The translations under genes were made by a program, and so were the position numbers. 64,000 nt of DNA from Aureococcus anophagefferens (taxonomy: Eukaryota; Sar; Pelagophyceae; Pelagomonadales; Pelagomonadaceae), in the NCBI RefSeq assembly GCF_000186865.1, contig NW_008705562.1, forward strand, positions 3,328,135 to 3,392,134, read 5' to 3'. This document shows, one piece after another, positions 4,966-62,773 of the stretch (positions within the stretch are counted from its first letter, which is position 1; every line of letters starts with the position of its first letter). Below the pieces are notes generated by a model, which had not been told where the DNA came from, did no database searches, and saw nothing but the letters and a program-made list of their open reading frames with translations.

Positions 4966-6424
4966 GCGAACGCGTAGCCCGCGCGCGTCGCGTTCGCGCG
5001 CCCCTCCGGCGAGACCCAGGTCGCGTCCTCGAGCCAGACGTCGTCGGCGTAGCGCACGACGGGGTCGTGCGTGTAGTCGGCGACGCCGCGGACGTTCGCG
5101 CTCGGCAGGTGCGCGAAGTCCAGATAGGTCTCGCTGAGCTTGAGCACGGCCATCCAGCCCGCGCCCTCCATGGCCGAGATGGCGAGGACGTCGCGCTTCG
5201 ACGACGCGGCGCGGCTCGTGCCGTTCGGGTACGCGGCCGCGGTCTCCCGCATCAATTCCGCGACGTAGCCCCGCGCGAGCTCGTCGTAGGGCGCGCCGTT
5301 CCAGTAGGTCGCGCTCGTCGCCTCGCCGCAGACGTCGTAGCCCCAGGCCCGGGCGTCGCGTTTCTCCGCGCGCGCGTACGCGGCCGCCCACGACTCCGCG
5401 CCGCGCGCCGCGCCCGTCGCCGCCCAGTAGCCCGCCTCGAAGGCCCGGAGCTCCGGCGGCGCCCGGGGCGTGTGTTCGAGGTTCCGCGTCGCCGCGAGCA
5501 CCTCATCCGCTAAACTCGGCTCCGTGAAGTAGGAGCAGCCGAAGTCGCCGAAGAGGTCCCAGCGGTCGTGGAGGCTGCACCTGCGCCGGAAACGACCGGT
5601 GGAACGCCCCGTCCAGCAAAAACTTCTCTCGCTCGGTCACATCGAAGTCGTTTCGGCTGATTTTTGGACAATTCGTTTTCTCTCGGCGGGTTCCTTTTGG
5701 ACAGTGAAAGAACTATGTCAAAGTCGTGCAAAAACATGCATATTGAAGTCGTGTCGAACATTTTTGTTTCCCGCCCGGGGCTGCACGGCGCCTTCGCGCA
5801 CGCGTTCCGCGACCGCGCGGTCTCGGGCGCCTCGGCCAGCGCGCCCGGCGCGGGTTTCGCGTAGGGCTCGGCGGCCCAGAAGCAGCGCTGGCAGTCCCAG
5901 TCCGTCGCGAAGGGGCTCACGCAGACGTCGCCGAGACGCACGAGCTTGGCCGCGGCGCCTTGATTCGCGGCGCCGCAGGCGTCGCTGTCGAGGATGCCGC
6001 CGACGGCCGGCGAGCCCCCCGCCGTGCCCAGGAAGAGCACCTCGCGGGCCTCGGGCCCGTAGACGCGGAGCAGCGAGTCGAGGCAGAGCGCCGCGCGCGT
6101 CGCGCCGATGCCGGTCGTCACTATCAACACGGGCTGGCCCGCGACGTCGCCCCGGTGCGCCGTCGGGCAGAAGAGGTCCTCCTTCGCGACATCGATGGTC
6201 TCGAGGTCGTGGGCGACGTCGAGGAGCACGGCGGCCTCCGAGAAGCCGCCGATCATGTCGCCGGGGTCCGCCGAGAGGATGAGCGACAGGCGCCGGCGCC
6301 GCGGCGACCGCAGCGTCGCGCCGTAGAACGGCGAGCGGCGCGTGGACGCGTACAGGACGCAGGCCACGATCGCGCACGCCAGCGCGACGCCGCGGCGGAG
6401 GGCGTGGCCGCTCGAGCTGCCCAT
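4875..6424 (-). CDS. Nucleoside phosphorylase superfamily protein (NUP/bark-storage-protein-like), membrane-anchored
   Basis: Two exons (6424-5787 and 5580-4875) join into a 447-aa protein after removal of a 206-bp introner. The N-terminus has a signal-anchor (residues 10-27, GVALACAIVACVLYAS). It then matches the PNP/UDP phosphorylase fold: an early VLIVTTGIGATRAAL segment, a FLGTAGGS loop, and a late SAMEGAGWMAVL element like the substrate-binding MEG motif. Plant relatives include bark storage proteins and nucleosidases. Probably a secretory or lumenal nucleoside-cleaving enzyme; activity is unproven. The joined frame across the intron (APC|SLHDRWDLFGD) is uninterrupted. Confidence 0.78.
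5581..5786 (-). mobile_element. Introner, long family (copy 1), spliced intron of the NUP-like gene
   Basis: The intron begins with GTGCAGCC (plus-strand 5779-5786) and is followed in exon 2 by the identical 8 bases (5573-5580), a target-site duplication. The element itself (5581-5778, 198 bp) has imperfect terminal inverted repeats (CCGGGCGGGAAAC / GTTTCCGGCGCAG). It carries the family core TCCAAAAATCAGCCGAAACGA in the gene-sense direction. The donor GT comes from the duplication and the acceptor AG from the element. It is markedly lower in GC than the exons. Confidence 0.9.
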
Positions 6425-7343
6425 AATTGCTCAGAGAGTCACAGGTTCAAACTCGCTTCACCAACCGCGGCGCGCGCCCGCTGCCGCCGCACCGGTCGAC
6501 GTGCAGAGCCCGCGAGACGCCGGCCGACGTGCATCGCGCCAGTGCTGTCCGACGCTCGCGCGCGCGGAGACGCGGCCGCGTCGCACACCGCGGAGACGCG
6601 GCCGCGTCGCACAGTGTGTGGCAGGAAGCCGCGTGGCAGCCAGTGCGAGTCTCGGCGGATTATTACAAAGGAGGGGTACACGGGGCGTCGACAGGCTCGG
6701 AGGTCCCGCGGAGCGGGGCGCGGCGGGGAGCCCGGACGCGGCGCGGGCCGCGTTTCGCGGCGGCGCGGGCCTGTCGCAGTCTAGGCCAGGGGGTGGTGGG
6801 CCGCCGCGTGCGCACGCCGTGTGTCGACCGCCGCGCGCTGGAAGACGCGCTGGCCGCAGCCTGCGGAGAGGGAGCCGTGCTCCGAGACGACGCAGACGGA
6901 GTCGCCATCGTACGACGACGTCACGTCGCCGACAGGCTGCAGAGCGTTGTTCGAGCTGTGCGGGATGTCGGGCGAGAAGAGCAGGCGGCTGCTCGGCGTG
7001 AAGGAAGCCCTGCGGCGGGATCGGGACGTGACGGGAAGGTTTCGATCGAAGTTTGAAATTGGGGGCTTGTCTGCCGTTCGCGGCGCGCGCGCGCGCGACT
7101 CACCGGCACCAGCAAAGCGTGGGAATCAGCAAAGCGAATGAGATGGTACGCATGGTCGGAGGTGTCGTTGCTCGTGAACGCGTGCTGCCACAAGTCAGGG
7201 TTCTGGCGGCTTCACACCCTGAAGCTCGATCTCGGCACGCCGAACATCGATCTCGTCACCGGGGGTCTCGTGGAGGCCTTCGTGGGGGTCGTCACGAGTC
7301 GCCGGCCACACGCAGGCCTACACGCGCCCGATGGCATGGACGT
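6425..7343. other. Intergenic region between divergent/neighbouring minus genes
   Basis: No supportable gene. A 22-bp direct repeat GGAGACGCGGCCGCGTCGCA.. occurs twice (about 6567-6588 and 6591-6612) upstream of the NUP-like gene. Open frames here lack motifs. Confidence 0.45.
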
Positions 7344-8411: not shown

Positions 8412-8599
8412 AGCGATTGCGGTCTGTTGTGCTCTGTTTGGCTGCTCGTGCTGCAGCGATGCGATCGCTGCGGTCTGTTGCGCTATCTTTGATACGTGTT
8501 TGCGTAGTTACGCGGCTATCACGCCGAGCGCGCACACATAGAGTCTACGCTCGCCGAAGTCAACAAAAAGCCACAAGTGCAAAAACGCCTGGGCCCGCG

Positions 8600-9652: not shown

Positions 9653-9707
9653 GAGGAGTTGGCTTCGTCGGAGGCTTTCCCAGCTAAAGGACGCTCAGCG
9701 CGCGCGG

Positions 9708-10112
9708 CTACAGCTCGTCGTGGCGGCCGAGCCGCTTGTCGACGAGCCTCTCGAGCGTGTCGACGTACTCGCCGCCGTAGTGGACGAGGTAGAAGGGCTC
9801 GGGATCGGCGAGCTTGCCGCCCGGCGGCCACCACTTGAGCATGGGGTACGCGTGGACGTCGAGCGTTTTAATCAACGCGGGCTCCGCGGGGCCGGAGAGC
9901 GACGCGAGCGCGACGTCGTCGCGCCGCAGGACGAGCTCGTCGAAGGCGCCGAGCAGGTGCTCCGCGCACATGTGCGCCGTCTTGCTGCAGAAGAGGGCGA
10001 GCACGGGCCGCTCGCCGCCGATGGCGTCCTCGAGGGCCGCGCCGGTGGTGATCTCCGCGTTGGCGGCCGCGGCGCCGCGCGCGGCGAGCGCGAATACGAT
10101 CAGCCGGAGCAT
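9708..10112 (-). CDS. ER-resident thioredoxin-fold protein ending in HDEL
   Basis: The protein has 134 aa. An N-terminal signal peptide (LIVFALAARGAAAA) is followed by a compact thioredoxin-like domain: a strand VLALFCSKTAHMC (36-49), then HAYPMLKWW with a likely cis-Pro at 90. The C-terminus is exactly HDEL, the ER-retrieval signal. The active site is atypical: instead of CxxC there are Cys42 and Cys49 six residues apart. It may therefore be a non-redox PDI-like chaperone or have altered redox chemistry. Convergent with the TPR gene, whose stop lies 55 bp away. Confidence 0.72.
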   Translation of the reverse strand: MLRLIVFALAARGAAAANAEITTGAALEDAIGGERPVLALFCSKTAHMCAEHLLGAFDELVLRRDDVALASLSGPAEPALIKTLDVHAYPMLKWWPPGGKLADPEPFYLVHYGGEYVDTLERLVDKRLGRHDEL

Positions 10113-10264
10113 GGCGACGCCGCGCGGCGCGACGCACGCTCGTCAAGGCCGCGCAAGGGGCTGCCCACAGCACCTCGAGCTCTCCGGAGCGGGCTGCCCC
10201 GTCGGCTGCATCTTTACGGCACTCAGATGGCGCTCGACAAAGTTGCCGCAAAGCTCGCGAGCCG

Positions 10265-22900: not shown

Positions 22901-25900
22901 CAGTTCGACGGCGTCGACCAGTACCCGGACGAGAACTACGCGCGCGAGTTCATGCAGCTCTTCACCATCGGCCTCCGCGAGCTCCGCGACGACCAGCGTC
23001 GAGCGACGGGAGTGTTTTTTCGCGTGAATTTCGCCTAAAGTTGTGAGGAAATCCGACCCCGTCGTACTTGGTAGGCGACGACGGCGCGCCCACGGGCTAC
23101 GAGACCTACGACAACGACGATATAGCGACGCACGCGCGCGCGTGGACGGGCTTCGACGTCGCGCCGCTGCGCAGCAACGTCGAGGCGAAGCGCGCGGCGA
23201 ACTACGTCGACGACCTCCGCGTGCACGCGGACCGCCGCGACCCCTTCCCGAAGCGCGACCTCTACGGCGGCTACATCGGCGACCGGCGGCCGCGCTGCGC
23301 GGACCTGGACCCGCTCGGCGCGGGGTCTTTGTTCGTCAAGGTCGCCGTGAAAGACGCCTACGCGGCGCCGCTGTCCAACGGGACGCTCTACGCGGCGCTC
23401 TGCGCCGAAACGGACGGCGCCTGCGCGTTCCCCGAGACCGTGGCGCTCTCGACGAAAATCGACGGCACGCTCGCGACCCCCCGCGTCGCCCTGGCCGAGG
23501 GCCGGCGCTACGGCGCGGCGGCCGTCTACGAGTACGCGCCGCCCGCGTGCGTCGCCGTCGCGTTCTACGAGAGCGGCGTCCGCGCGACGGACGCCCTCGG
23601 CCGCGCCCTCTGCGCGGATCGCGCCGCCCCGGCCTGGCGCGCGGCGGGCGCGACGATCGACGAGGAGTCGCCCTGCGCGACGAAGGTCCAGGTCCACAAG
23701 ACGGGCGCGGTGAATTTGGTCCACGACCCGGCGTCCGACGACGCGTTCCTCGCCGACAGCGACCGCCTCTTCCGCGTCGCCTGGGCCGGGGCCCACCCGA
23801 CGGCCGACGGCGGCTGCGGCGGCTGCACCGCGCGGGGCGTGACCTGCGTCTGCGACACCGAGGCGACCGCGGCGGCGGCCTTCGACGGTATTCCGGCCTG
23901 GGACGACGCGCTCGCGACCCTCCACGTCGGCTCGCCCGTCGGCGACCCGGCGACCCACGAGGGCTACGCCCTCTACGGCGAGGTCGACGGCGTCGCGGCG
24001 TACGTGAAACTCGCGTCGTGCCCCGGCTGGTGCGAGAGCAGCTCGCAGCCCGACGAGGTGACGTGCGCCATGTCCGCCTGCATGGAGTGCCACTTCTGCG
24101 GCGTCCTCTCGGGCCTCGCCCTGGACGAAGAGGCCGTCTTTTCGTTGACGGACGAGGTCGGGACCGCGATCCATCTCAAGAACGTCGTCGAGACCGTCGA
24201 CGTCGCCGGCGGCCTCTACGCCTTCCGCAACGCGCCGCACTTCGTGCCCTTTGGGCTCGCGGGCGCCGAGGACTTGGACGACGCGGGGGCCCTGTCGGTC
24301 GCGGGCCGCGCGGCCGTCGCGGAGACCGAGGCGCTCATCGACCACATGTTCGAGCACTCGAACACGCCGCCCTTCTTCGCGCGCCACCTCATCCAGCGCA
24401 TGGTGACGTCGAACCCGTCGCCGCGCTACGTGGCCGCGGTCGCGGACGCGTTCCGATCGGGCGCCTACGACGGCCGGACGTACTCGGGCGCCTACGGCGA
24501 CATCGGCGCCGCCGTCGCGGCGGCGCTGTCCGACCGCGAGGCGCGGTCGGCCACGATTTTAGCGGACCCGACGCACGGCCGCCTCCGGGAGCCGCTCCTC
24601 AAGGTGCTGCACTTCGCGCGCGCGATGGAGCTGTCGCCGACGGGCGGCCGCGAGGTCTCGCTCGAGGGCATGGACCAGAAGATCGGCCAGATGGCCCACG
24701 AGGCGCCGAGCGTGTTCAGCTACTACCTGCCGGACTACTCGCCCCAGGGCGCCGTCGGCGACCGCGGGCTCGTCGCGCCCGAGGCGCAGGTGTTGACGGG
24801 CACGCAGATGATCGGCCTGCTCAACGGCCTCCACTCGCTCATCGACCACGGCCTGTCGCGCTGCGCGTCGGGCTTCGGCGGCGAGACGGGCTCCTGCCAG
24901 TGGCCCGCGGCGGGGGGCCTCGCGTTCGCGCCGGCGGACGACGACGCGGCGGCCGCCGTCGCGGAGCTCGACGTGCTCCTCACGGAGGGCCGCCTCAGCG
25001 CCGGGAGCCGCGCCGTCGTCGAGGCGGCCTACGGCGCCGCGACGAATCCCGCCGCGGCCCTGCGCGCGGCCCAGGAGCGCATGGTCCTCGCGCCCGAGTT
25101 CCACGCGACGAACGCACACGAGCCCGGCGCGCCGCGCGACTCGTCCAAGTACGAGAAGCCGTCGTCGGCCAAGTTCAAGGCCGTGGTCATGTTGTTTTTG
25201 AACGGCGCCGTCGATTCGTATACCATGCTCGTGCCCCACAGCCAGTGCGAGAATTCGAACCGCCTCGCGCGCGAGTACCGCGAGTACCGGGGGCCCGTCG
25301 CGGACATGCCCTTCGACGTCACCGACGACTACCTCCTCATCGAGCCGAGGGAGGACACGCAGCCCTGCGGCACCTTCGGCATGCACCCGAGCCTCGCCAA
25401 CGTCCACGGCCTGTACGAGGACGGCGACGCGGCGTGGTTCGCGAACATCGGGCCCCTCGTCGAGCCGATCACCGTCGACGAGTACCGGTCCGGCGCGAAG
25501 CGCACGCCGCCGTCCATCGGCGCCCACAACGTCCAGCAGCGCATCGCCCAGTCCGTTCATTCCGACGACATGAACGCCCAGGGCGTCATGGGGCGCATCC
25601 TCGACGCGCTGTCGAACCCGAAGGCGAACCCGCTGAACGCCGTGGGCTACAGCCTCAACGGCATGCAGAAGGCCCTCGAGGGCTCCGGCGCGGCGGACGT
25701 CGTCGACCTCAACGGCGACACGGCAACTTCCCGCGCCTGCTGGACTACGACCGCCTCAGGGCCGACTTCGAGGCGCTCACGGACCCGGAGAGCTCGTCGG
25801 CGTTCGCGGACACGTTCGCGGGGCTCGTCGGGTCGGCCGTGCTCAGCGCCGAGGAGATCTCCGCCGTCTTCGAGGGCAACGACGGCCTCACGGCGACCTT

Positions 25901-31673: not shown

Positions 31674-34426
31674 ATGGCGGGCGACGAGGACTGGGCCCCG
31701 GGCCTGGTGCCGTGGGGCATGGAGCAGCCCTCCCCGGGCCCCTCCCCCTCTCGCCCGAGCGTGTCCGTGACCGACCGTGTCTCGAGCGCGCGCGAGAGCC
31801 TCGGGGGGCTCTCGCTCTTCGACGACGAGGACCTCGCGGACCTCGCGGGGTCCGACGACGGGCTCCTCGACTTCCCGGAGTTGCCCGTCGAGGAGACGTC
31901 CTTCGAGGACGCTCCAGCTGCTTCGAGGACGAAAAGGCTGAGGAAGCCGCGGACGCTCATGAACGTGTCCGACACCAGCGGCCGGAGGTACGCGTCCCAA
32001 GCCCCCCCCCCAGCCTCCCCACCCGCCCCGCGCGACATCTCCAAGGGCGTCGCGCCCGCGCGGGGCCGCGGGGCTGGGCCTCCCGGGGCGCGCCCCGCCG
32101 GCCGGCCGGCCGGCCGGCCGGCCGGCCGGGGCCGGGGCCGGTGCCGGGATCGTCTCGGCGCGCCACCGCCGCCACGACCTGTACCCGCTCCCCAGCCACC
32201 TGTACCCGCTCCCGCACCTCCACCACTCCCTCGGGGCGCTCCTCCTGCTGGGCGAGGGCGAGGAGCCCCTCCTCTTCCCCACCCTCGACCATCGCTTCCT
32301 CGCACCCATGCGCCCCGAGTTGAATCGGTCAAAAACGCCACTGGTGCGCCCACCCCCACCCCTCATCATACCTTTCACCACATCCCTCCCTCATAGGTCT
32401 GAACTCCTACGACTCTACGCTGAACAGAATTTTCTTTTCGGGCTACGACGGCGAGGACGTCGACCTGTTCCGCGTCGCATGCGAGGCCCAGGTCAAGGCC
32501 GAACTCCAAGCAGGCCGAGCTGTAGCGCCCGTTGACGCGCTCTACATGGTCAACCACTCGGAGCGCGTCTCCTGTTTAATCCTCTACATGCAGACGGCAA
32601 CGTGCCTCGACAACCCATCCCGGATGTATGCCCCCACCGGCATCAAAAAAAATCTTGACTCCATTCAGTCATATCTACGGTCGGGCCAGCGTCCCCCTTT
32701 TTTTTACACTTTTTGACTTTGAGATTTTGGAACATGACACTCAAATCGTAGGTTGCGGGAAGGCAAGGACAGCCAAAGGGCTACGGAATTGGGCAATTGG
32801 GGTTTTTGGAACAAAACTGATACTGCTTACCGTCGCCTGAATCAGTCGTACAAGGATTTTGGGTTGCGTTTCCAGAAAGAGATTACCTTGTCAAATGCTG
32901 AAGGCCGTGCGGAGCTTTACGCTCGAGTGGGCCACACGAAGACCGACCCCATTCCAGCAGCTATCTTTGACCACATGAAAAAATACGTGGACCGCCTCAT
33001 CACACTTACTCGTGGAGACGGACCTAGTTTGAAAATACAACTTCTTGACGACTATCACCGACGTTGTGTTTCCTCCGGAGACACCCGCACTGTCCACCTC
33101 AGCAGATTTGCTCAACACCTAACTCTCATCAGGTTCCGCTTTCAGCTGGACATCGCCTACAACGCTCTTGGTCGAGCGGTCGAGCAATATGAAAAGCTCT
33201 GCACTTACGATCTGATCCCTGTGAACTTAGCTGGTGGCAAAAAAGGACTTTGGGGATTGGAGACATGGCCGCTGAAGACAACGAGGATTAATGCCATGGG
33301 CAAACTTGTCCAAAAACCGCCATACTTTATCATTGACGGTGGTACGAATGCTGGTATAGTTGAACGGTTTGAGACTTTGCTCAGTGGCAGGCCTCCTGGA
33401 TCTCCCTCAAGCGAGCCTCCTGGACAGTTTCGAGTAAACGACAAGCTGCCGCCGAATGATGTCCGGTTGATACTAAAGCCGCGGGCAGATGTTACCAGGG
33501 CTTCGAAGGTTTGGTGGGGCCAGCCGGTTGGACGAAATATGATTAATTTTATTCCTTCGCTTCTCAAGGCCATGAGGACTGACCCAACTATTCCACCACC
33601 GACGAGAGAGCGATTTGGGAAAATGATTCCGGAATCTGGGGTTTACAGCCTTGGAAGCGCCCGTTACGGAATGGACTCGTACCTCACTGAACGTGGGGTA
33701 CCAGATCATTTCATCATGCTTCTTCTTGGGCACGTGACGTCAAGACTCAAAGCGATTTCAGCCATGGATTCCAATGCAGGGACTTATCGTACCGGAGCCA
33801 TGAAGAGCAGCGCAGACCACGCACGTCTTGCACTTCTTCTCACCCATCCGCCTAAGGTCACCAAGTACTACAAGGATTGCACACCGAGCAGTGAACTGGT
33901 CGAGAGTATCAACGCTACGATGCCGGATCAAATTAAGAGGTCAGATGTGGACTTGGATCGACTTGCTTCGGGTCTTGCTTCGGAGCTGGATAAAGAGTTC
34001 GAGAATGACGATGATGGCATGGATGGGATGAATGCTCTTATGGATGATTCGCAAGCCCCGGCACCTGCTACACGAACTTCTCCGACTCCTGCTGTGACTT
34101 CTGACTCGCCTGTGCCTCCTTCGTATATGCCTCCGTACGCTAATCCGAGCATCATCTCAAATTCCAATCAATTCTTCAGTGGAGCTCCAATGCATGCCCA
34201 TCAAGCCATGCCTTTGACTCCACTGCCCATGTACCATCATCCCATGCATTCCATGCCCCATCAATCCATGCCTCAGATGCACCATGCACCTCCTGCGACT
34301 CCGAGGGGCAATACTGGGAACTTGATCGCAAAGATTTCGGAACTGAATGATCTCCTGACGGCCCGGGCTATTACCCAGAGCGAATTCGATACTCTCAAAC
34401 GAAATTTGCTGTCGTCTCCGCGATGA
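31674..34426 (+). CDS. Tyrosine-recombinase-like protein (multi-exon)
   Basis: The last exon (32752-34426) joins cleanly to an exon at 32397-32679 (SIQSYLR|LREGKDSQRA), bounded by GT-AG with a T-rich 72-bp intron. The exon before that is uncertain; a candidate start is the ATG at 31674 (MAGDEDWAPG). The core resembles tyrosine recombinases in its C-terminal half: SLGSARYGMDSYLTERGVPDHFIMLLLGH, with LGH like the conserved His box and a Tyr about 20 residues later (GTYRTG). The usual HxxR box is not intact, so catalysis is uncertain. The tail is Pro/Met/His-rich and ends in a SHOCT-like helix (ISELNDLLTARAITQSEFDTL). Codon use differs from neighbours, suggesting transfer. Confidence 0.55.
32090..32135. 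repeat. GGCC simple repeat
   Basis: A run of (GGCC)n interrupts the first exon candidate of the recombinase-like gene. The frame that encodes the following HDLYPLPSHLYPLP stretch differs from the frame before it, so the repeat length or a splice event decides the reading frame here. Confidence 0.8.
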
Positions 34427-34793
34427 TGGCGCATCTGGGACGTGCTCCGATTCTGCGATCCTGTTCTGCCAGGATCTGCCCCGACGCCTCCCTACTTCTT
34501 AACTATCTTATCGTACTCTTCGTTCTGTACTCCCTACTCCTCTGTACTCCTAAAAGTATAGTCCGGATTTCTATGGGGCATACTGTACTCCGGGTTACTC
34601 CACCTCCTCTACGTGAGAAAGTCGCGACCAGGGTAGATTCGTGACTTAGCGATTCTTTACCGCAGGCCTCGAGCGTACAAAACTGGTCGACGCCGCCGCG
34701 GCATCGCCGCGCGTCGCTTTTTCGTGGCCACACGCCGAAGTCCCGCGCCGTCGAGGAATCGTCCCGGTGTCATCGCCGGACTACCGCCAGTCC

Positions 34794-42280: not shown

Positions 42281-43738
42281 CTACGCCCCGAGCGCGCCGT
42301 CGGAGATCGGGAGCAGGAGGCTCTTGAAGGCGAGGGCGACGATGGCGTTGACGGCGACGTTCGCGAGCGCGCCGTCCGGGTCGTGCTCCCGGAGCGTCTG
42401 GGCGACGTCCTCGGAGTAGGCGCCGAAGCCCGAGAGCGCGCCGCAGAAGGAGCCCGCGACGCGGTCGAGCGCGGCGTGGAGCCGGTCGCCGGCCGCGCCG
42501 CGGCGCGCCGCGAAGGCCGCGTAGGCCGGGAGCCGGAAGACGACGAAGATCGACGACGCGACCGCGAGCGCGACCTGTGTGGAAATCAAATCTTCAACCC
42601 GACTTCAATGTGCGCGTATGCGACCGTTTCGACGCGAGGTTTTCTGCTGTGCTTCGAGAACTCGACGAGAGCAATCGATTCGTCCAAAAATCAGCCAAAT
42701 CGACTTCGATTTGACCGAGCTAGAGATTTCTGAAGTTTGGCCCCGACGTCCCAGCTCACTGGTTGATTTCCACACAGAGCGCGACCGCGTTCGCGAAGGC
42801 CGTGCCCCAGTTGACCTCGCCCTCGTGGACCTGCGCGGCGCCCGGGCTCGCGCGCGCGCCCGGGTGCGCCGTCGCCGCGCCGGTCGCGGGCGGCGAAGGA
42901 CAGCTCGTAGTCGACGAGGTGGCCGACGAGCTCGCCGGCGACGCACGCGAGCGCCGTCACGGCGCAGCCGAAGGCGAGCGCGGCGCCGCGGCCCGGGCCC
43001 GCGGCGCACTCGCGCGCGAGCGCCGCGGCCAGGAGCGCCGCGAGCGGCGCCGCGAGGCCCGCGGCGTCGCCGGGCGGCGGCGCCGCCGGCGGCGGGAACG
43101 CGGCGAGCGCCGCGCGGCGCCCGAGGAGGTGGAACGCCGGGCCGAGGAGGAGGCAGCCGAGGAGGTACGGCGTCGACAGGTCCACGGTCTCCTTGTCGCG
43201 CTTCGCCTGGGCGACGGCGCGGGTTTTCGAGCGATCCCACGCGTCTTCGGACGGGCGATCGGCTCGCGGCCCCGTCTCGAACGCTCGTCGAAGGGTCCCC
43301 CGCGCCGCGCGCCGCGAGCTCCGCGGCGTGGACGACGAAGAAGACGAAGGACGTGTAGGCCGCGACGAAGCCGTCGTTGAAGGCGCTCCAGAGGGCGCCG
43401 CGCCGGCCGCCGTGGGCCGCGAGGACCGCCGCGAACCCGCCGAGCGCCGCGCCCGACAGGTTGAGCAGCGTGCCCTGGAGTTCGACGCCCAGCACGCTCC
43501 CGAGGTCCGGCGTGACGACGCTGTTCCAGCACTCGGCGAGCGCCGCCATGAGGCAGACGAGCAGCAGGCTGTGGGCGTTGCCGCTGAGCCGCGCGCCGAA
43601 GCGGCTCGTGAAGGCCACGTGGGCGTGGGGCGGCCGCGCCGCCGTTTTGGCCGACTGCGTGAAGGCGCCGGAAATTGCCAGCAGCAGCGCGACGATGAGC
43701 GGGCCCGCGCAGAACGCGATGGCGTGCGCCGTCGTCAT
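42281..43738 (-). CDS. Fluoride-exporter-like (CrcB/FEX) membrane protein
   Basis: At least four exons: 43738-43316; 43206 to about 42890; 42830-42786; 42574-42281. The product is an all-helical membrane protein with two related halves, as in eukaryotic FEX. The second half shows FRLPAYAAF and SFCGALSGFGAYSEDVAQTL, close to the CrcB GxxGxxTTFSTF segment. The first half has LGSVLGVELQGTLLNLSGAALGG and NDGFVAAYTSFVFFVV. It then ends ANVAVNAIVALAF. FEX channels expel cytoplasmic fluoride. The canonical TTFS residues are changed, so function is tentative. One intron is an introner. The donor of the intron ending at 42831 is unresolved. Confidence 0.6.
42575..42785 (-). mobile_element. Introner, long family (copy 2), with perfect 15-bp terminal inverted repeats
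   Basis: The element (42575-42777) has ends CTGTGTGGAAATCAA and TTGATTTCCACACAG, perfect inverted repeats. The flanking duplication is GTCGCGCT in gene sense (plus-strand 42778-42785 and 42567-42574). Splicing gives AFANA|VALAVASSIF in phase 0. The core TCCAAAAATCAGCC is present, antisense to the gene. Confidence 0.92.
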
Positions 43739-45290: not shown

Positions 45291-46327
45291 CTACTCCATG
45301 AAGTCGGCGTCGCCGCCGGCCGCGGCGGCCGCGCCCGGCCGGTCCGAGATCACGCCCGCGCCGCCGGAGCCGCGCTGCTGCGCGACGTACTTCTCGTAGG
45401 TCCACTCGTGGTCGCTGTCGTCGTCGTCGGAGTCGGAGTACATGGGCGCGATCCACTTGAGGTCCTCCTTGAGGTCGTCCTGGGCCGTGCCGAGGTACGT
45501 GAACGCGAACGCGTCGCCGTTCGCGTAGCCGACGTCGCGGACCGTGTCCTTCGCGTCGCAGGGGATCCAGTTCACGTAGTCCTTGAGGCGGCTCTCCATC
45601 ATGGCCTTGTGGTCGTCGTCGACGGGGCCCGAGTTGTACTTCTTCACGGGCAGCAGCGGCTTCTCTTTGAGGCCCGTCTCGCGGCAGATCGTCGCCTGGG
45701 AGAGATTCGAGTTCGCTTCGACACGAGCGTCCCGCGCGTTCCGAAAAAGCAACCATGCTTCGAGACCGTTCCGAGCAATGATCGCGCGTCCAAACATCAG
45801 CCGAAACGAGTGGAAACGGCCGAGAGAGGAGCCTTGGAAGTTGGGAAGTTCGCGCTCTTTTCCCGCCCCGATTCGTCGCCTTGAGGTCGACGACGGGCGT
45901 GTCCGCGTAGACCTCGACGGTCATGACCTTGTGGTCCTTGTGCTCCGGGTGCATGACCTTGAGCGTGATCTCCGGGCCCCGGGTCCGCGCCGCGGGCGCC
46001 TCGGGCGCCGCGGGGACGGCGTAGCCGCCGGCCTCGCTGCTGAACCAGCCGCCCTTGGACGCGGCCGTCGCCTTGGCGCGCATCCAGGACCCGTCGAGCT
46101 CGACGACCTCGAGCTCGTCGCCGACGCCCCGCGAGCACGCCGGCGTCGAGTCCACGGCGGCCCACTTCTTGAGCACGAACTTGGCGCTGCCGCCGCCGAC
46201 CTCGTTGCTCGCCGTCACGACGAACTTCGTACCTGCGCGCGGGCCGGGGCTGGGCCGGGGGGCCCGGGGGGGGGGCGACCGCACCGACGTCGCCCATCGC
46301 GCCCGCGGCTGCTACGACCGCGGCCAT
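45291..46327 (-). CDS. Protein with SH3-like and ubiquitin-like regions
   Basis: Three exons (46327-46285, 46232-45880, 45695-45291) give 266 aa. The first intron (46233-46284, 52 bp) is GT-AG and splits a Gly codon (MGDV|GTKFVV). The N-terminal half contains a beta-rich SH3-like segment (RGVGDELEVVELDGSWMRAKA). The region EITLKVMHPEHKDHKVMTVEVYADTPVVDLKATICRETGL resembles a ubiquitin-like beta-grasp start. It ends in an acidic stretch (SDSDDDDSDHEWTYEKYV) and an Ala/Gly tail. Family not identified; possibly cytoskeletal or an adaptor. Confidence 0.6.
45696..45879 (-). mobile_element. Introner, long family (copy 3), GC-AG intron
   Basis: In gene sense the intron begins GCGACGAA and exon 3 begins GCGACGAT, a 7/8 target duplication. 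The element starts CGGGGCGGGAAAAGAGCG and ends TCTCCCAG. The core CGTTTCGGCTGAT(G)TTTGGACG is in gene sense. Removal gives VVDLK|ATICRETGL in phase 0. The donor is GC. Confidence 0.88.
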
Positions 46328-51327: not shown

Positions 51328-54300
51328 ATGCCCGACCCGCCGCCGGAAGGCCTCGTGCGCATGCCCGCGGCGCGCGCCCTCGCCGCGCGGCCGAGCGAGG
51401 AAAACATCGCGCACACGGCCCTGCGGTCCCCCGGCCGCGACACGCTCCTCGACCGGCCGTCGCACCTCAGCGGCCGGTCGACGCGCGAGGACATCGAGGC
51501 GTACCACGCGTCCATGCTCGACGACACGGAGGCGGAGGCGGCGGAGGAGGCGGCGGCGGTCATCTTCAGCGGCCACCTGAGCAAGCGGGGCCACGTCCGC
51601 GCGACGTGGAAGACGCGGTGGTTCGAGCTCCGCGAGGGCGCCATGGTCTATTTCGATAGCCAAGGGGGGCGCCCCCTCGGCGCCGTGCTCCTCGGGCCGG
51701 AGACGTCCGTCGTGCCGAGCGGCCACAAGCCCAACTGCGTCTTCATCTCCACGCCGGCCGCGGCCAAGGCCGCGCGCGGCGCCGAGGTCGAGGCCCTGGG
51801 CTGCCGCGTGCACAAGAGCTTGTTCGTGGAGTGCGGCACGTCCAAGGAGAAGGAGCGCTGGATGAGCGCCGTCTTTGCCGTGATCAACCTGCAGCGGGGG
51901 CCGTCGCTCGCCGTCAAGGGGCTCCGGGACCGGCACTGCGCGTGGGAGCCCGACTCCTCGAAGGCGCGGACGCTGGAGCAGGTGGACCGCGAGCGCTTCG
52001 CGAACATCATCTCGGACGGCGGCAAGGCGACGACGTCGGACCGCGAGCTGATCTTCGGCGAGGTCATGCGGGGCGTCGAGAAGTGCCGCGCGGAGCGGCC
52101 GCAGCTACGCGTCAAGGTCCACGCGGGCCGGGACCTGCCCTGCGTCGGCGACGCCAACGGCCTCGCGGACCCCTTCGCCAAGGTCATGCTCGGCGGCGTC
52201 GTCGCGCGGACGCGGACCTGCCCGGAGTCGCTCGACCCGCGATGGGGCGAGGCGCTCACGCTCGACTTCGACCGCGAGTCCATGCGGTTTCTAGTCGTGG
52301 AGGTCTGGGACGAGAACGCGACGATCCGCGGGCCGAGCGAGGAGTTCATGGGGCGCCTCGTGCTGCCCCTCGCGGCGCTGGGGCCCGACGTGCGCGTGGA
52401 CCGCTGGTTTCACCTCGGCCGGAGGTCGTCGCGCGACCGCGGGTCCCGGGGCCAGATCCGCCTCGAGATCGCGACGAACGTGCCCCTGCTGGCGGGGCTC
52501 TCCGAGGCGCTGGCCCACGCCGCGGCGCTGCCCGTCTTCGCCGGGGGCCCGGGCCGGGGGCTCGGGCTGCCGCTCGCGGGCGCGGAGGCCGTCGAGGACT
52601 GCGCGTCCGACGTCACGCTGGTCTGCACCGCGGGCGACCAGGGCGCGACGGCGGCGAACGACGGGGTTTTATTGCTGACGAACCACCGCCTCTTGTTCGC
52701 GCGCGACGAGTACTGGCCAGGGCAGGAAAAGAGAGCGAAATTCCCAACTTCAAAGGCTCCGATCTCGGCCGTTTTCCACTCGTTTCGGCTGATTTTTGGA
52801 CGAGCGATCATCTCTCGGAACGGTCTCGAAGCATGGATGCTTTTTCCGGAACGCGCGCGCGCAGAACACTCATGTTGAAGAGAACTTGAATCACCCTTTT
52901 CCTGCCCAGGTACTGGCGCGGGTCGAAGCGGCCGGGCCTCACGTGCCACGCGTCCCTCGGCGCCGTCACGGGCGCGGAGCTGCGGACCAAGGGCGGCGTC
53001 GATTCGTTGGTCGTGCACACGGCGACGGCGCGGACGTTGGAGTTCCAGTTCCACGGCGTCGCGAGCCGCAAGGTCTCCGCGGCGGCCGACGACGGCGCGG
53101 CGGCGCGGCGCCTCGACCGCGGGCTCCTGAGCCGCTTCGACGCGATGCTCGGCGCCGTGCTCGGCCGCCGCACGGGCAAACCCAAGGAGGACCGCGCGCG
53201 CGTCGAGAGCGTCGTCATCGCCGCGCGCGAGACGGAGTGCGCCGCGCCGGAGCGGCCGCTCGCGGGCCTCGACGCGCCCGACGCGGACGAGGGCCCGCCG
53301 AGCGCGCGCATCCACGCGCGCCTCGAGTTCTGGCTCGCGAACCGGCCCCGGCTCCTCGAGCGCTGCGCGACGGCGGCCGCGGCAGCCATCGCCGGCTTCA
53401 CGTCGACGTCGTCCGCGGCGCACGCGGCGCTGTCCTACCAGCGCGGCACCTACGACGACGACGACGACGACAACGACGGCGACGACGACGACGAGGCGTC
53501 CGACGGCACGGACGACGACGACGCCGAGGGCGGCGAGCTCACGGCCTACGCGGCCGCGCGCGCGTCGACGCGCGTGCCGCGGCTCCTGAAATTCGGCTGG
53601 GACCTCTTCGACGCGGCCCGCGAGCTCCAGCGCCTGGGCATCCCCGACGGCGCCTGGCGCGTCACGGCGGCGAACGAGGACTACTCGCTCTGCCCGACCT
53701 ACGCGCGCGTGCTCGCCGTGCCGCGGTCCGTCGACGACGCGAGCCTCCGCGCGGGGAGAGCGTGATTCAACGTCGCTTCAACGTGAGTGTTCCGCGCGCG
53801 CGCGTTCCAGAAAAAGCATCCGCGCTTCGAGAGCGCTCCGAGAGATGATCGCTCGTCCAAAAATCAGCCGAAACGAGTGGCCGAGAGAGGAGCCTTTGAA
53901 GTTGGGAATTTCGCACCCTTTTCCCGCCCAGGCGAGCCTCCGCGAGGTCGCGGCCTACCGGTCCAAGGGCCGCATCCCCATCCTCTCCTGGCGCGACCCC
54001 GTGACCCACGCGACGATCTCGCGCTGCAGCCAGCCCCTCGTGGGGGCAAGAGACCGGCGTCTACCGGGCGGCGAAGCAACCATCGAGCATCCGCGCAGGT
54101 GCTCCACAAACGGTCCGTCGCGGACAACGCGATGCTCCTCGCCGTCGCGTCCGCGAGCGGCTGGCGGTCCCTCGAGGGCGACGACGAGCTGGACGCGGAG
54201 GCCGCGACGCCGCCGGGCGTGCTGTCGACGGCCTCGGACGATCTGACGCTGCGGGCGCGGGTTCCGCGCGGAGATGTTTCGTCGAACCCCCCGACCACGC

Positions 54301-55908
54301 GCCGAGAGTTTGTTTGGATCTTTTCTTCGAACCGCGCCGCTCCAGGCGCTCGCGAAGGAGACGTCGCTGGGCAAGGCCGTGCGCCGCGCGAGCGGGCGGC
54401 TCGCGGGCGACGCGGCGACGGGCGACGCCGCGGCGGAGCGCGCGCGCGAGGGCCCCCGCGAGGCGCTCTGCGAAGACGACGAGCGCGCCGCGGCCTGCGA
54501 GTCGCACGTGAACTTTGGGGACCTGCCCAAGCTCGGCGACCGGCGCGTGTCGCTCACGCCGCGGTCGAGCGAGGCGCCGGCGGACGACGCCGCGCCGCCG
54601 CCGGCGGGCGACGCGACGCCCCAGCTCCGGCGCTACGCGGCGTGGCGGTCGCGCGCGCTCCGGCGCGCGCGGCGCCACAGCCTCCGCGAGTCGCTGCCCG
54701 CGGGCGCCAACTACGCCGCCGCGCGGCGCCGCGCCGGCGTCCCAAGAGAAAATGTTCCGACACTTATCGTGTCATCTACGAGGTTCCGCGACCGGTCCCG
54801 ACGAGCGTTCAAGAGACACTTTTCGCGTAGGCCCGCGAGCTCCCAGAGCGCGCTCGCGCACCGCGACGCCGACGCGAAGCCGCCCATGCTGCTCGTCGTC
54901 GACGCGCGGAGCCCGCTGGCCGTCAAGGGGAACCAGATCGCGGGCGGCAAGGGCACGGAGACGTTGGAGCACTACGAGGGCGTGCGCATCAGCGTCCTGT
55001 GGCCGTGACGATTTTCGAGAGATTTCGGCTGGGAAAACGACGAAAAATCGTTACCGACATGCTTGGTAGGTGCGCATGCGCCTCGAGTTCATGGGCATCG
55101 CGAACATCCACGCGGTGCGCGCGGCCCACGACGGCTTGGTGGACGCGGTCTGCGGCCGCGGCGACTTCGCGGCGGCGTGCGCGTCGAGCTCGGGCTGGTT
55201 CGCGCTGCTCCAGCGGCTGCTCGCGGCCGTGGTCCACGTCGTCGACGCCGTCGCGCGCCACGGCGTGCCCGTGCTCGTGCACTGCAGCGACGGCTGGGAC
55301 CGCACGCCGCAGCTGACCGCGGGGTCGATGCCAGCGTCCTGTGGCCGTGACGATTTTCGAGAGATTTCGGGTGGGAAAACCTATGAGAAATCGTCACCGT
55401 CACATTTGGCAGGTCGATGCTGCTCATGGACCCGTTCTACCGGACGATCCGGGGCTTCGCGGTGCTCGTGGAGAAGGAGTGGTGCGCCTGCGGCCACAAG
55501 TTCGCGGAGCGGCACGGCTTCGACGACAAGGGCCACGCGTCGAGCGACCGCAGCCCCTGCTTCCTCCAGTGGATCGACCTCGTGCACCAGGTCCGGCGCC
55601 AGGCGCCGGACGCGTTCGAGTTCAACGTCGAGTTCCTCGTGACCGTCGCCGCGGCGGCGAGCGACGGCTGGACGGGGACCTTCCTCTTCGACTGCGACCG
55701 GCTCCGCGAGGCCCACAAGCTCAAGGACCGCGCCGTGTCGCTCTGGTCGCACGTCGAGGCGCGGCGCCGCGACTTCAAGAACCCGACCTACCGCCCCGAC
55801 GACCGCGTCATCTACCCCCTCGTGGGGCGCCAGCACCTCGTCCTCTTCGACGCCTGGTTCCAACGCTGGCACGGCGCCGTCAACGGCGTCTACTGGGACG
55901 CGGACTAG
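51328..55908 (+). CDS. PH-C2-myotubularin phosphoinositide 3-phosphatase
   Basis: About eight exons give roughly 1,252 aa. Order: PH domain (about 78-190, SGHLSKRGHVRATWKTRWFEL); C2 domain (about 255-375, VKVHAGRDLPCVGDANGLADPFAKV); GRAM-like start (LLLTNHRLLFARDEYW|RGSKR); myotubularin catalytic domain with NEDYSLCPTYARVLAVP, RCSQPLVG, VVDARSPLAVKGNQ, GIANIHAVR, and the active site VHCSDGWDRT (Cys about 1075), so it is likely active. The end is VSLWSHVEARRRDFKNPTY. Firm introns are 52710-52909, 53739-53931, 54046-54098 (GC-AG), 54982-55069 and 55324-55412. Two more, ending at 54345 and near 54846, have uncertain donors. Myotubularins remove the 3-phosphate of PI3P and PI(3,5)P2 on endosomes. 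Confidence 0.85.
52710..52909 (+). mobile_element. Introner, long family (copy 4)
   Basis: Target duplication GTACTGGC (52710-52717 and 52910-52917). The 192-bp element begins CAGGGCAGGAAAAG and ends CTTTTCCTGCCCAG, near-perfect inverted ends. Splicing restores RDEYWRGS in the GRAM region. Core in gene sense. Confidence 0.95.
53739..53931 (+). mobile_element. Introner, long family (copy 5), inverted, GC-AG
   Basis: Target duplication GCGAGCCT (53739-53746 and 53932-53939). The element lies in the opposite orientation to copy 4 (it contains GTCCAAAAATCAGCCGAAACG and ends CTTTTCCCGCCCAG). Splicing gives SVDD|ASLREVAAYRSKGRIP in phase 0 using a GC donor. Confidence 0.92.
54982..55069 (+). mobile_element. 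Introner, short family (copy 2)
   Basis: Target duplication GTGCGCAT (54982-54989 and 55070-55077) around an 80-bp element CAGCGTCCTGTGGCCGTGAC ... CTTGGTAG. Internal GTGACGATTTT and AAAATCGTTAC form inverted sub-ends. Splicing gives HYEG|VRMRLEFMGIANIH. Confidence 0.95.
55324..55412 (+). mobile_element. Introner, short family (copy 3)
   Basis: Target duplication GTCGATGC (55324-55331 and 55413-55420) around an 81-bp element almost identical to copy 2 (same first 36 bases). Splicing in phase 2 restores LTAGSMLLMDPFYRTI directly after the catalytic loop. Confidence 0.95.
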
Positions 55909-58854: not shown

Positions 58855-60698
58855 GGCGCTTTTTCGGGGCCGCGGCGCGCCCGAGACGCGCCGCCGGCGC
58901 TCGCCCGATTGGGCGAGGCCGCCGACCCGGGAGAAGTACCGAGCCGCGACGGGCCAGCGCTCCGACTCCCGGGCGGCCGCGCGCCGGCGGCGCACCGGGC
59001 GCGCCGCGCCCCCGCGCCCAAACCACCCGCGCCGCGCCGCCGAAGCTCCATCGTCCTGGGGGGAGCCGGAGGCGGCGCGGCGGACCCCCCGGTCTATCCG
59101 CGCCGTTCGCGACCGACCCCCCAGCCCACTCCCCGCTTAATCTTCATCTTAGGTTCTAAGGGGGTTTAATACGAAGTCAGAGTTGCGCTATGGTTTCGGA
59201 GGTCCCGTTTTCTGATGATCGGGCTACGATTTAATCTAAGAGCGACCTGCGCGGTCCCCGTACTGCCAGATGGCGCATGATTTAATATGCCATCATCGTG
59301 TTTTTGGACCAACCATGGCCATTGAAAAACAGAATCATGCAGTCAAGGTATCTTCTGCGACCACGGTTTTCTGGGCGTCCGATGCAGCGGTTCCAGGACT
59401 TGGCGCGGCGCTCGGTCTGTGGACCATGCCGCGCCTCGGGCCCGACTGCGAGTCGCTCGGGAAAGACCACCGGTCGATGGCGAGCAACTTGGTTCGCGTC
59501 GGGGCAGCCCGTGGATGACGAGAACGGCCGTTAACGATGGTGGGCGACCGACGAGGGGCCCAACTTAGTTCCAGAGGTCGAGCGGTGCGCTAGACCCTGG
59601 GTAAGCCACCCCTGGAATGTTTTCCCGGAGGTCTCTGCTTAGCACTGGCGCACCGAACGTCTCATTCATTGCGCGGTGAGCACCGTGTCACCCGCGGCGC
59701 CGCGCGCCCGTCGGAGGCGCTGAGATGATCTCGATCAAATCGACTCGAGCCGAGGAGCTGTCGCGAGAGCATCTGGTGGCCCCCATGACGAACGATTCCC
59801 GACGCTCTGTGGCTCGAAAGCGACCCGAAATTGGGTCGGGGGACGCTGCCGAGCCTCACTGCACCCCCTGAAGCTGCCCGTTTGCGCCACCTCGCAATCG
59901 TTTGGATGTCGCGTCTTCGCAGGTGCCTCGCCCACATGTTTGCGGACCTCGAAGCCACTGGGATCGTTGCACGTCCCTTCATATTCGCGGAGCTCTGGAC
60001 GTCCAACAGTTCACCAAGCATCTCGTCGGTCGAGCGCAGCGATGCGGAGATGCGATGCGGACCGGGCTGTCGAGGTATCGTTGTCGTCAATGTTGACGAA
60101 ATTCAATGGCTATGGTTGATTTAAAATGGAATTAAATCGGCGCGCAGGTTGCCGGCGCCGGCCAGCCTCCGGCGTCCCTTCTAGCCGACGTAGATTAAAT
60201 AATCCAGCGCGACGGCGTTGTGATTATTTCGCAGGGACATCGGCGTCGGCAGATCGATTTGTCTCCCCTTCGTTCCCTAGTCTAGCTTAATCTACCCAGA
60301 TGAAGGAGCGCGGGGCGTCGAGGCGGCTGGCGGGATACGTGGGCGCGCGGAGACGCGCGCGGCCGCACGCTCGAGGCCATAAGCAAAACTAACCCTCGAC
60401 GGAATAAACTTCACTGAGCTCGATGAACTTTGGGATATGAATGGCTGTGAGTGCACAGCCAATATTGAAGACGATGCAAACTTTAAAACGAGTGGCTCGC
60501 ATCGTTTATGATATATACGTTGGGCAATTATAATCACTACGGCTCATCCTATATTATGCCGGTGAGGCCGGCGACGCCCGCCGACGGCCAGATCCGCCGT
60601 GGACGCGACTGGTGCATCAGCTCCTAAAGCAACATCCACGCCGCCCGCGCCGCCGCCGCCGCCGACGCCTCGCCGGAGGCCGTTTGGCGTTTCCCACA
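58855..60698. other. 1.8-kb intergenic region, AT-richer from about 59160
   Basis: No convincing gene on either strand; the open frames are under 150 codons and lack motifs. GC is much lower than in the gene regions. TTTAAT/ATTAAA motifs recur (59166, 59230, 59281, 60121, 60195). It could be a decayed mobile element or regulatory spacer. Confidence 0.5.
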
Positions 60699-62773
60699 AT
60701 GTCGTCGCGCCAGCCGATCCGCCACGGGTGGCTGCTCTGGGCGGCGACGGGGACGACGGCGACGATGAACGCCTACCGCTACCCGCCGCTGCTGTCGACG
60801 GCCGTCGGGTCCTTCGTGTGCCTCATCTGGATTTTGTACAACGTGTCGACGCGCATGCTCATCTGCAACTTTCTGAGCGGCTGCGTCGACATCTTCTTCC
60901 GCCAGGTCGCGGTCGCCGGCGCGCACAAGCTCAACGCGAGCGACTGCCCGCTCCTCGTCGCGATCGCGCCGCACAGCAACCAGTTCATCGACCCCATGAT
61001 CGTGCTCAAGACCTTCGAGCGCAACATCGGCTTCCTCTGCGCGGCCAAGTCCATGCGCTTCAAGGGCGGCCCCGCGGACATCGTCGCGTCGCTCGCGCGC
61101 GGCTTAGACTGCGTCCCCGTGGAACGCGCGCAGGACATCGCCGCGGTCGGCGCCGGGAAGCTCGCGAAGGCCGCGGCGGCGGCCGACGGCGGCGCCGTGC
61201 ACGTCCACGGCAGCGGCACGGCCTTTGTAAAGCAGGTGAAGCCCGGGGACCAGCTCCTCATCTCCGCGGGCGCGTGCAAGGGCGCGCTCGCCAAGGTCGC
61301 GGACGTCGTCTCCGACGAGTTACTAGTTTGCGCCGCGCCGGCCTTCCGGGGGTCCGACGCGAACCCCGACGCGACGGCGGCGGACGTCAAGGACGCGGCC
61401 TTCAAGGTCATGCCCAAGGTGGACCACAGGGCAGGAAAAGAGAGCGAAATTCCCAACTTCAAAGGCTCCTCTCTCGGCCGTTTTCCACTCGTTTCGGCTG
61501 ATTTTTGGACGAGCGATCATCTCTCGGAACGGCCTCGAAGCATGGATGCTTTTTCCGGAACGCGCGCGCGCGGAACACTCACGTTGAAGCGACATTGAAT
61601 CTCTCTTTTCCTGCCCAGGTGGACCAGCACGACATGTACGACGCGATCTACGACGCGCTGGACGACAACGGCGTCATCGGCATCTTCCCCGAGGGCGGCT
61701 CCCACGACCGGTCGAGCCTCTTACCGTTGAAGGCGGGCATCGCCGTGATGGCGTTGGGCGCCTGCGCGAAGCACGGCGAGGCGCTGCGGTCGCGGCTCCG
61801 CATCGCCGCCGTCGGCCTCAACTACTTCTCGGGCCACAAGTTCCGGAGCCGCGTCTTCGTCGACTACGGCGAGCCCTTCGAGGTGTCGCGGGATCTCGTG
61901 GACCGCTACCTCGGCGGCGACAAGCGCGGCGCCGGCGACGCGCTCATGGCGGAGATCCTCACGGCCGTCAAGGCCGTGACGGTGCAGGCGCCGTCGAGTG
62001 ACATGGCGGAGATCTTCTGGATGCTCCGGCGGCTCTACGTGCCCGACGGGAAGCGGCTGACTTTGGAGGAGAAGGTCGCCCTGACGCGGGGCTTCGCGGC
62101 GTCCGTGGAGCGCGACGAGGGCGCGCACCCGGAGGTCCGCGACGTCGTCGTCCGCGTCGAGAAGTACCACGAGACGCTCAAGCACTACAACATCCACGAC
62201 CGCCAGGTGCTGCTGGGCGGCGCCGACGACGACGTCGTGGACCGCTTCGACGCCCTGGCGATTTTGGGGCTGCGCGTGACCATCCTCTTCGCCTACAGCC
62301 TGGCCATCTTCCCGGGGCTGCTGCTGGCGTCGCCGCTCCTCGTGTTTACGGACGCGATCTCGAGGCACAAGGCCAAGGTCGCCTTAGCCGGGAGCCGCGT
62401 GAAGCTGCGGGGCAACGACGTGCTCGCGACGTGGAAGGTGCTCTGCGGCATGATCCTCATCCCCGCGCTCCACCTCACGTACACGGCCGTCGTCTACGCG
62501 CTCTACGGCTTCCCCGAGGCCGTGCTCTACTTCTTCTTCATGCCCTTCGTGTCCGCGACGTCCATCTACGCGTCCGAGTCCTTCCTCTCCGTCGCGTCGT
62601 CCATCGGGCCCCTCTACCTCCTCATCGTCAACCGGTCCACGGGCACGCGGCTCCGGGCGACGCGGAAGCAGCTCCAGGCCGACGTCCGCGAGATCGCGAA
62701 CAAGCTCGGCTGGGCCGAGATCATCCGCAAGTCCCGCAGCGCCCACGCCGCGCTCTCCGAATACTCCCCGTGA
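60699..62773 (+). CDS. Glycerol-3-phosphate O-acyltransferase, GPT2/SCT1-like
   Basis: Two exons (60699-61418, 61619-62773) give 624 aa. The acyltransferase block I is APHSNQFIDPM (90-100). After the intron comes GIFPEGGSHDRSSLLPLKAG (about 261-280), matching the yeast SCT1/GPT2-type GPAT rather than plastid GPAT. Membrane helices lie near the N-terminus (STAVGSFVCLIWILYNV) and in the C-terminal third (ILGLRVTILFAYSLAIFPGLLL; TATAVVYALYGF-type). It would make lysophosphatidate from glycerol-3-phosphate at the ER, the first step of phospholipid and triacylglycerol synthesis. Confidence 0.88.
61419..61618 (+). mobile_element. Introner, long family (copy 6)
   Basis: Target duplication GTGGACCA (61419-61426 and 61619-61626). 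The 192-bp element is almost identical to copy 4 (52718-52909): it starts CAGGGCAGGAAAAGAGAGCG and ends CTTTTCCTGCCCAG. Splicing gives VMPK|VDQHDMYDAI in phase 0. The near identity of two copies in unlinked genes implies recent movement. Confidence 0.96.

What the first reader, a model, noticed from the sequence alone, without database searches (positions are those of the whole stretch)
5581..61618. Six long introners make introns in five unrelated genes
Insertions at 5581-5786, 42575-42785, 45696-45879, 52710-52909, 53739-53931 and 61419-61618 share the core CGTTTCGGCTGATTTTTGGAC, inverted ends of the GGGCAGGAAAAG type and 8-bp flanking duplications. Removing element plus one duplication restores the frame and known domains each time. 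Copies lie both sense and antisense to the host gene, so both strands of the element can act as an intron. This is DNA transposition making spliceosomal introns, seen directly. The link to introners of Aureococcus/Micromonas is established knowledge.
Basis: partly seen in the sequence, partly recalled or inferred. Interest (0 to 1): 0.92.

Follow-up and report, generated by a model that had tools for sequence, protein, structure and literature searches.

The report
Transposon-made introns in a brown-tide alga
Six short mobile DNA elements have jumped into five genes of the alga Aureococcus and appear to be removed as introns; this kind of element is already described in this species, but the sequences show in detail how such an element stays spliceable.

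Summary
All six intervals carry the core (4 exact, 1 with one, 1 with two mismatches; none in shuffles). They are predicted introns: donor (GT or GC) from the 8-bp duplication, acceptor CAG at the element's end. The host is Aureococcus anophagefferens or a very near strain (99% protein identity). Introners of this species are already published (PMC9860276, citing Huff 2016), so the main claim is known. The genome holds 1155 exact-core copies.

Beyond the finding: (1) In the 192-bp family one base, position 2 of the inverted repeat, fixes the strand that can splice: among pattern-matching copies the one-sided form occurs 1028 times, symmetric T/T 6, A/A 0; form and coding strand agreed in 63 of 63 scored one-sided copies. 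A sister family has symmetric ends and occurs both ways. (2) 1012 of 1028 copies are followed by GC (535) or GT (477), a likely cause of this alga's 39.6% GC-AG introns. (3) Three more short introners lie in the window. Splicing was not observed in RNA.

The parts
5581..5786 (-). Introner intron (206 nt) in a nucleoside-phosphorylase-like gene; donor GT from duplication GTGCAGCC (5779-5786, copy 5573-5580), acceptor CAG at 5581; core antisense to gene
   Evidence: spliced protein gapless to P0122 (99%, 447 aa)
42575..42785 (-). Introner intron (211 nt), sister family with perfect inverted ends CTGTGTGGAAATC; donor GT from GTCGCGCT; core sense to gene (CrcB-like)
   Evidence: the CrcB match spans the junction but is below the curated cut-off; coding strand not scored as confident
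45696..45879 (-). Introner intron (184 nt), GC-AG, duplication 7 of 8; core sense to a gene of unknown function
   Evidence: spliced protein gapless to P0143 (99%, 247 aa)
52710..52909 (+). Introner intron (200 nt), GT-AG, duplication GTACTGGC; core sense; myotubularin-like gene
53739..53931 (+). Introner intron (193 nt), GC-AG, duplication GCGAGCCT; core antisense; same myotubularin-like gene
   Evidence: gap-free myotubularin alignment over the junction
61419..61618 (+). Introner intron (200 nt), GT-AG, duplication GTGGACCA; core sense; glycerol-3-phosphate/DHAP acyltransferase gene
   Evidence: gapless to P0001 (98.7%, 624 aa aligned)
54982..55069 (+).
   Evidence: spliced protein aligns to MTMR2 with a 2-residue gap next to this junction
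55324..55412 (+).
   Evidence: gap-free MTMR2 alignment over this junction
22986..23074 (+). Short introner (89 nt), GC-AG, duplication GCGACGAC, ends CAGCGTCG...TTGGTAG; assigned to the third family by its ends and length only
   Evidence: one frame continues after removal; it was not among the repeat matches

Best explanation
The six intervals are introners: short non-autonomous DNA transposons that a transposase encoded elsewhere inserts with an 8-bp target duplication. The terminal inverted repeat has two jobs. As DNA it is the transposon end; as RNA, read outward, it is a 3' splice site (pyrimidine stretch CTCTTTTCCTGCC plus CAG). The 5' splice site (GT or GC) is the first two bases of the duplicated exon sequence, so splicing removes the element plus one duplication and leaves the mRNA unchanged. 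In the 192-bp family base 2 of the repeat is A at one end and T at the other, so only one strand of a given copy ends in CAG; two mirror subtypes exist and each was found only in the matching orientation to the gene. The 203-bp family has T at both ends and is found in both orientations. Shown: repeats, duplications, polarity, GY constraint, open empty-site reading frame. Inferred: actual splicing, cut-and-paste mechanism, the transposase.
For: Core never seen in shuffles; 1155 exact-core copies in the genome, 590/565 by strand. Of 93 copies examined with flanks, 80 had a confident coding strand and 76 of these a clear family; in these 76 the duplication starts GC (50) or GT (26) in gene sense, 76 of 76, against 20.5% in the flanking exons, and the acceptor is CAG in 76 of 76; duplication position 8 shows no mirror constraint (C in 38 of 76), so this is not a palindromic target preference. 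Genome-wide 1012 of 1028 pattern-matching copies are followed by GC or GT. Form and coding strand agree in 50 of 50 (A or G at the left end, T at the right: sense) and 13 of 13 (T at the left end: antisense) copies (Fisher p 1e-13). The 93 are not a random set: 40 lie in loci of best BLAST hits, 35 in consecutive exact-core loci of C1, 12 in loci fetched for T/T, 5 in the window, 1 other; in the C1 loci alone 27 of 27 confident G-family copies follow the rule. Spliced-form proteins at about 99% identity without gaps over the junction for three of the six.
Against: No RNA reads or annotated transcripts were available. The 99% proteins come from contigs whose nature (RNA or DNA) is not given, so they could be empty alleles. 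Open frames that read into or out of the element also exist at two junctions (P0145-P0149 at 45696; P0126, P0129 at 5581), so intron retention is not excluded. Sixteen of 1028 copies are not followed by GY. L049, one of the C1 copies, lies between stretches that code on the other strand and was not scored. No transposase with matching ends was found.
Confidence: 0.95

Rival explanations
1. Ordinary miniature transposons sitting in exons that are not spliced and simply break the genes.
For: For any insertion with a duplication, removing element plus one duplication restores the frame, so frame restoration alone does not show splicing; frames that read into or out of the element exist in the protein collection.
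Against: Unspliced insertions would not need GY at the duplication start (76 of 76; 1012 of 1028) nor match their one CAG end to the coding strand (63 of 63 one-sided copies); exons on both sides keep strong coding scores in 80 of 93 copies.
Confidence: 0.03
2. Introns copied by reverse splicing of intron RNA into other transcripts and reverse transcription.
For: Copies lie in many genes and behave as introns.
Against: The first 8 intron bases vary from site to site and match the flank of that site; inverted ends; copies in both orientations to the gene. None of this is expected from an RNA copy of an intron.
Confidence: 0.01
3. An add-on about the asymmetry, not a rival to insertion: the A/T asymmetry of base 2 exists because a fully paired stem would hide the acceptor AG in RNA, so symmetric copies splice badly.
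For: Predicted probability that the acceptor A is unpaired is 0.96 in copies with A at the donor-side end (n=54) and 0.02 when that base is set to T.
Against: The sister CTGTGT family has T at both ends, its AG is equally paired (0.02, n=9), and it is found in both orientations. Two T/T copies of the G family also sit in genes in the sense direction.
Confidence: 0.15

Closest known systems
Introner elements of Aureococcus anophagefferens (Huff, Zilberman and Roy 2016, Nature 538:533; content recalled, paper not held, cited as ref. 12 in PMC9860276)
   Same: Same species by protein identity; short non-autonomous DNA transposon with duplication and inverted ends, one splice site carried and the other taken from the duplication (as recalled).
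   Different: I could not compare sequences with the published elements; the base-2 polarity and the GC/GT counts may or may not be in that paper.
Introners of diverse eukaryotes (Gozashti et al. 2022, PMC9860276; section 7 and passages read)
   [quoted passage not shown] 2B); up to 50% GC donors in some families.
   Different: Their Fig. 2B example has a 4-bp duplication (Symbiodinium). Their Aureococcus sp. example (Fig. 2F) carries both splice sites and adds 12 bp to the mRNA; the copies here carry one and add none.
Introner elements of Amoebophrya (PMC7789003, passages read)
   Same: Introns with direct and inverted repeats and predicted hairpins.
   Different: 3-5 nt direct repeats and non-canonical splice sites; here 8 bp and GY-AG.

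Membership tests
Introner (transposon-derived intron) | many similar copies as introns in different genes of one genome | tested here: met
   1155 exact-core copies, 3615 with up to 2 mismatches; coding sequence on both sides in 80 of 93 examined copies
Introner (transposon-derived intron) | removed by splicing in RNA | not testable with these tools
   no RNA reads; indirect support from GY/CAG constraint and spliced-form proteins
Non-autonomous DNA transposon (MITE-like) | target-site duplication of fixed length | tested here: met
   8 bp; exact in 22 of 28 distinct places of the C1 sample, the rest 5-7 of 8, one of these (L004) with misplaced ends
Non-autonomous DNA transposon (MITE-like) | terminal inverted repeats | tested here: met
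   10-14 of the first 14 bases in the 192-bp copies with well-placed ends, 12-14 in most 203-bp copies
Non-autonomous DNA transposon (MITE-like) | autonomous relative with the same ends in the genome | tested here: inconclusive
   PF05699 and PF18758: no match, control genomes silent; P-element-like PF21787 found but without matching ends
hAT superfamily | hAT transposase with matching ends | tested here: inconclusive
   no PF05699 match, control genomes silent too
P-element superfamily | P-like transposase flanked by the introner's ends | tested here: inconclusive
   one degraded gene with an introner-like stretch beside it, one side not readable; two open-frame genes without such ends in the fetched 3.4 kb
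Introner of A. anophagefferens as published | sequence match to the published elements; insertion in nucleosome linkers | not tested
   paper not held; nucleosome positions not available

The most novel reading that the evidence does not exclude
The 192-bp introner can turn over in place: its interior inverts between the two inverted repeats while the outermost two bases stay put. Because base 2, which makes the acceptor CAG, lies outside the flipped part, the intron keeps splicing although its interior is now antisense. This would explain why two mirror subtypes (A/T and T/A) arose repeatedly, nested in each other, with hardly any T/T intermediate and no A/A (1028: 6: 0), without needing two matched point mutations each time.
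Probability: 0.2. Interest if true: 0.6.

Novelty: already known. Interest (0 to 1): 0.32.

Why it matters
Introners are strong evidence for how spliceosomal introns are gained in bulk. This genome lets one read the rule at single-base level: the transposon end doubles as the 3' splice site, the target duplication supplies the 5' splice site, and the orientation in which a copy survives in a gene is set by one base. It also offers a simple cause for the very high share of GC-AG introns reported for this species (39.6%, its origin called an enigma in PMC3033335): in exons where GC is four times as common as GT, a spliceosome that accepts both will be handed GC donors by insertion.

Tried and rejected
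Strand bias: the listing shows long runs of plus-strand copies on contigs C1 and C2; the reverse pattern lists the missing minus-strand copies, so this is a listing artefact.

Hidden-acceptor model for the base-2 asymmetry: fits the 192-bp family but fails in the 203-bp family.

Transposase: PF05699 and PF18758 gave nothing, with silent controls. PF21787 gave one degraded P-like gene with an introner-like stretch beside it; the terminus of that stretch faces the gene, so it looks like an introner that landed there, not the parent; no 8-bp duplication with good inverted ends was found around it (my reading, and one side of the gene is not readable). Two further P-like genes show no introner ends within the 3.4 kb fetched.

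Viruses as carriers: no exact core in the viral contigs (which may leave out records near this genome).

Rows dropped: 13 of 93 copies without a confident coding strand and 4 confident copies of unclear family were left out of the donor counts; some have misplaced ends (for example L004, L062+746, L066-369, and window-18192, the 45696 copy, which I read by eye). The 42575 copy (window-21298) is among the 13. L049 sits between two stretches that code on the other strand and was not resolved. In the tree the T/A rows fetched were chosen because they looked T/A (20 of those in the first 100 places listed); one long row (L011+3031) is in the set and may weigh on the p value.
Full report
What was checked. 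The 21-bp core occurs six times in the window with at most 3 mismatches and never in 100 shuffles. Each stated interval begins and ends at predicted splice sites in the sense of the host gene. The duplications are 8 bp, exact in five of six. The inverted ends fall into two types: CWGGGCAGNANAAG (called G family below; 5581 is a diverged relative) and CTGTGTGGAAATC (T family; 42575).

Where it is. The window lies in a 49.05-Mb genome of 86 contigs. The spliced acyltransferase protein matches A. anophagefferens entries in NCBI (P0002 at 91%, P0007 at 84% over part; their gene models skip pieces), and the nucleoside-phosphorylase-like protein matches one at 99% (P0123). The host is that species or a very near strain.

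How many. The exact core occurs 1155 times (590/565 by strand) and 3615 times with up to two mismatches. My least biased sample is 30 consecutive exact-core places on C1 (L001-L008, L041-L062; 28 distinct after removing two places already held). Thirty G-type elements lying in these loci diverge from their consensus by a median of 5.7% (range 1.0-11.8%).

Anatomy. In gene sense most G-family copies read G[C/T]NNNNNN - CAGGGCAG...CTGCCCAG - G[C/T]NNNNNN. I trained a codon-usage score on open frames of the window and loci and scored the empty site of each copy. Of 93 copies examined (40 in loci of best BLAST hits, 35 in C1 loci, 12 in loci fetched for T/T, 5 in the window, 1 other), 80 had one confident coding strand and 76 of these belonged to a clear family. 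Donors: GC 50, GT 26, nothing else. Acceptors: CAG 76 of 76. In flanking exons GC and GT together make 20.5% of dinucleotides (GC 16.4%, GT 4.1%), so both are accepted, and GT about twice as often per opportunity. Position 8 of the duplication is C in only 38 of 76, so the constraint sits at the splice site and is not a symmetric target preference.

Polarity. For the G family, 50 of 50 copies with A or G at the 5' end and T at the 3' end (core orientation) are sense to the gene, and 13 of 13 copies with T at the 5' end and A, C or G at the 3' end are antisense; two copies have T at both ends. In the C1 loci alone all 27 confident copies have T at the acceptor-side end. Genome-wide, with exact end patterns and an interior of 150-175 bases, the one-sided pattern occurs 1028 times, the T/T pattern at 6 places, the A/A pattern not at all. 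Of the 1028, 535 are followed by GC and 477 by GT, 16 by something else. In the T family the T/T copies with a confident strand are 4 sense and 5 antisense. So strand competence is a property of one base. The tree of 87 copies, with the last 14 bases at each end left out, needs 6 changes between the two forms, and T/A as one clade is rejected at p 0.009; its table gives 3 (A/T) and 4 (T/A) changes forced by starred branches, T/T rows counted as outsiders. The T/A rows were enriched on purpose, one long row is in the set, and many branches are weakly supported. I read this as repeated origin of the mirror form. An in-place inversion between the repeats would do it in one step; two point mutations through T/T would also do it. 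I cannot tell these apart here.

RNA structure. The acceptor A is predicted open in copies with A at the donor-side end (0.96, n=54) and closed when that base is T (0.02), but the T family is closed as well (0.02, n=9) and still used both ways, so I do not rest on this.

Proteins over the junctions. 61419: gapless over 624 residues to P0001 (98.7%), and the same residues meet in P0002 and in more distant relatives; two other A. anophagefferens gene models (P0007, P0017) skip the region. 5581: gapless to P0122 (99%, 447 aa); P0123 lacks 5 residues at the junction, as if a different splice site had been annotated. 45696, a GC donor: gapless to P0143 (99%, 247 aa). 53739, a GC donor: gap-free in the myotubularin alignment. 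52710 is weak (7.9 bits, 5-residue gap beside the junction) and so is 42575. Against: P0145-P0149 and P0126, P0129 read into or out of the element. The collection does not say whether these contigs are RNA or DNA.

More in the window. A scan for 8-mers starting GT/GC repeated after AG, with coding flanks, found six places: three of the known six (5581, 52710, 61419; the other three were missed) and three new ones of 88-89 nt with ends CAGCGTC...GGTAG or GGCAG (22986, 54982, 55324). Controls with other acceptors gave CG 5, TC 2, GG 1, GA 1 and four others 0; with other donors 0 or 1; so the scan alone is only suggestive, and the shared ends carry the claim. Two of the three (54982, 55324) are 87% alike and a further copy with an exact duplication lies in L064; 22986 is assigned by its ends and length only. 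The myotubularin-like gene then has four introners. Its rejoined C-terminal part aligns to MTMR2 over 279 residues (E 1e-59): gap-free at the 55324 junction, with a 2-residue gap next to the 54982 junction.

Literature. PMC9860276 (section 7 and passages read) reports 27,563 introner introns in 175 genomes, names the duplication/splice-site scheme found here, cites reference 12 for algal introners as miniature inverted-repeat transposons and for linker insertion in M. pusilla and A. anophagefferens, and describes a search for mobilising elements. PMC3033335 (passages read) gives 39.6% GC-AG introns for A. anophagefferens and calls their origin an enigma. PMC7789003 (passages) mentions A. anophagefferens introners with direct and inverted repeats. 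Huff et al. 2016 is not held; what I say of it is recalled. I did not see the base-2 polarity in the passages I read, nor in the listings of five searches, but the key paper was not readable, so I make no claim that it is unpublished.

Verdict. A real, correctly spotted and mostly correctly read case of a phenomenon already published for this species. The single-base polarity and the GC-donor account are the parts worth a specialist's look.

Noticed in passing
window 22986-23074, 54982-55069, 55324-55412: Third, short introner family (88-89 nt introns, 8-bp duplications, ends CAGCGTC...GGTAG/GGCAG), not in the finding.
   Followed up: partly
L089/L090 (G000:C25 near 178372-178980): P-element-like transposase gene (PF21787, E 1.4e-9) with 7 of its 8 in-frame stops TAG and one TAA near the start, and an introner-like stretch (86% over 72 bases) just downstream.
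   Followed up: partly
L092, L093 (G000:C2:3449163-3449561 and C11:1394141-1394539): Two 99.94% identical copies of a P-like transposase gene with a 563-codon open frame, each within 5 kb of a contig end, overlapping another long open frame; no introner ends in the 3.4 kb fetched.
   Followed up: partly
window 32526-34709: 2.2-kb low-GC island with a 557-codon open frame, poor fit to host codon usage, no Pfam match over cut-off, no NCBIfam or PDB match; the stretch FIMLLLGHV recalls a tyrosine recombinase (my impression).
   Followed up: partly
window 1-1160: Low-GC stretch (down to 32% in 100 bases) at the window start; no open frame over 133 codons lies wholly within it.
   Followed up: no
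window 5581 and 45696 junctions; P0126, P0129, P0145-P0149: Database proteins that read into or out of the introner; P0129 and P0149 carry other letters than the window's intron at the same site, hinting at strain variants or relatives.
   Followed up: partly
L049: A G-family copy between two stretches that code on the other strand; it does not fit the polarity rule (perhaps in an older intron).
   Followed up: no
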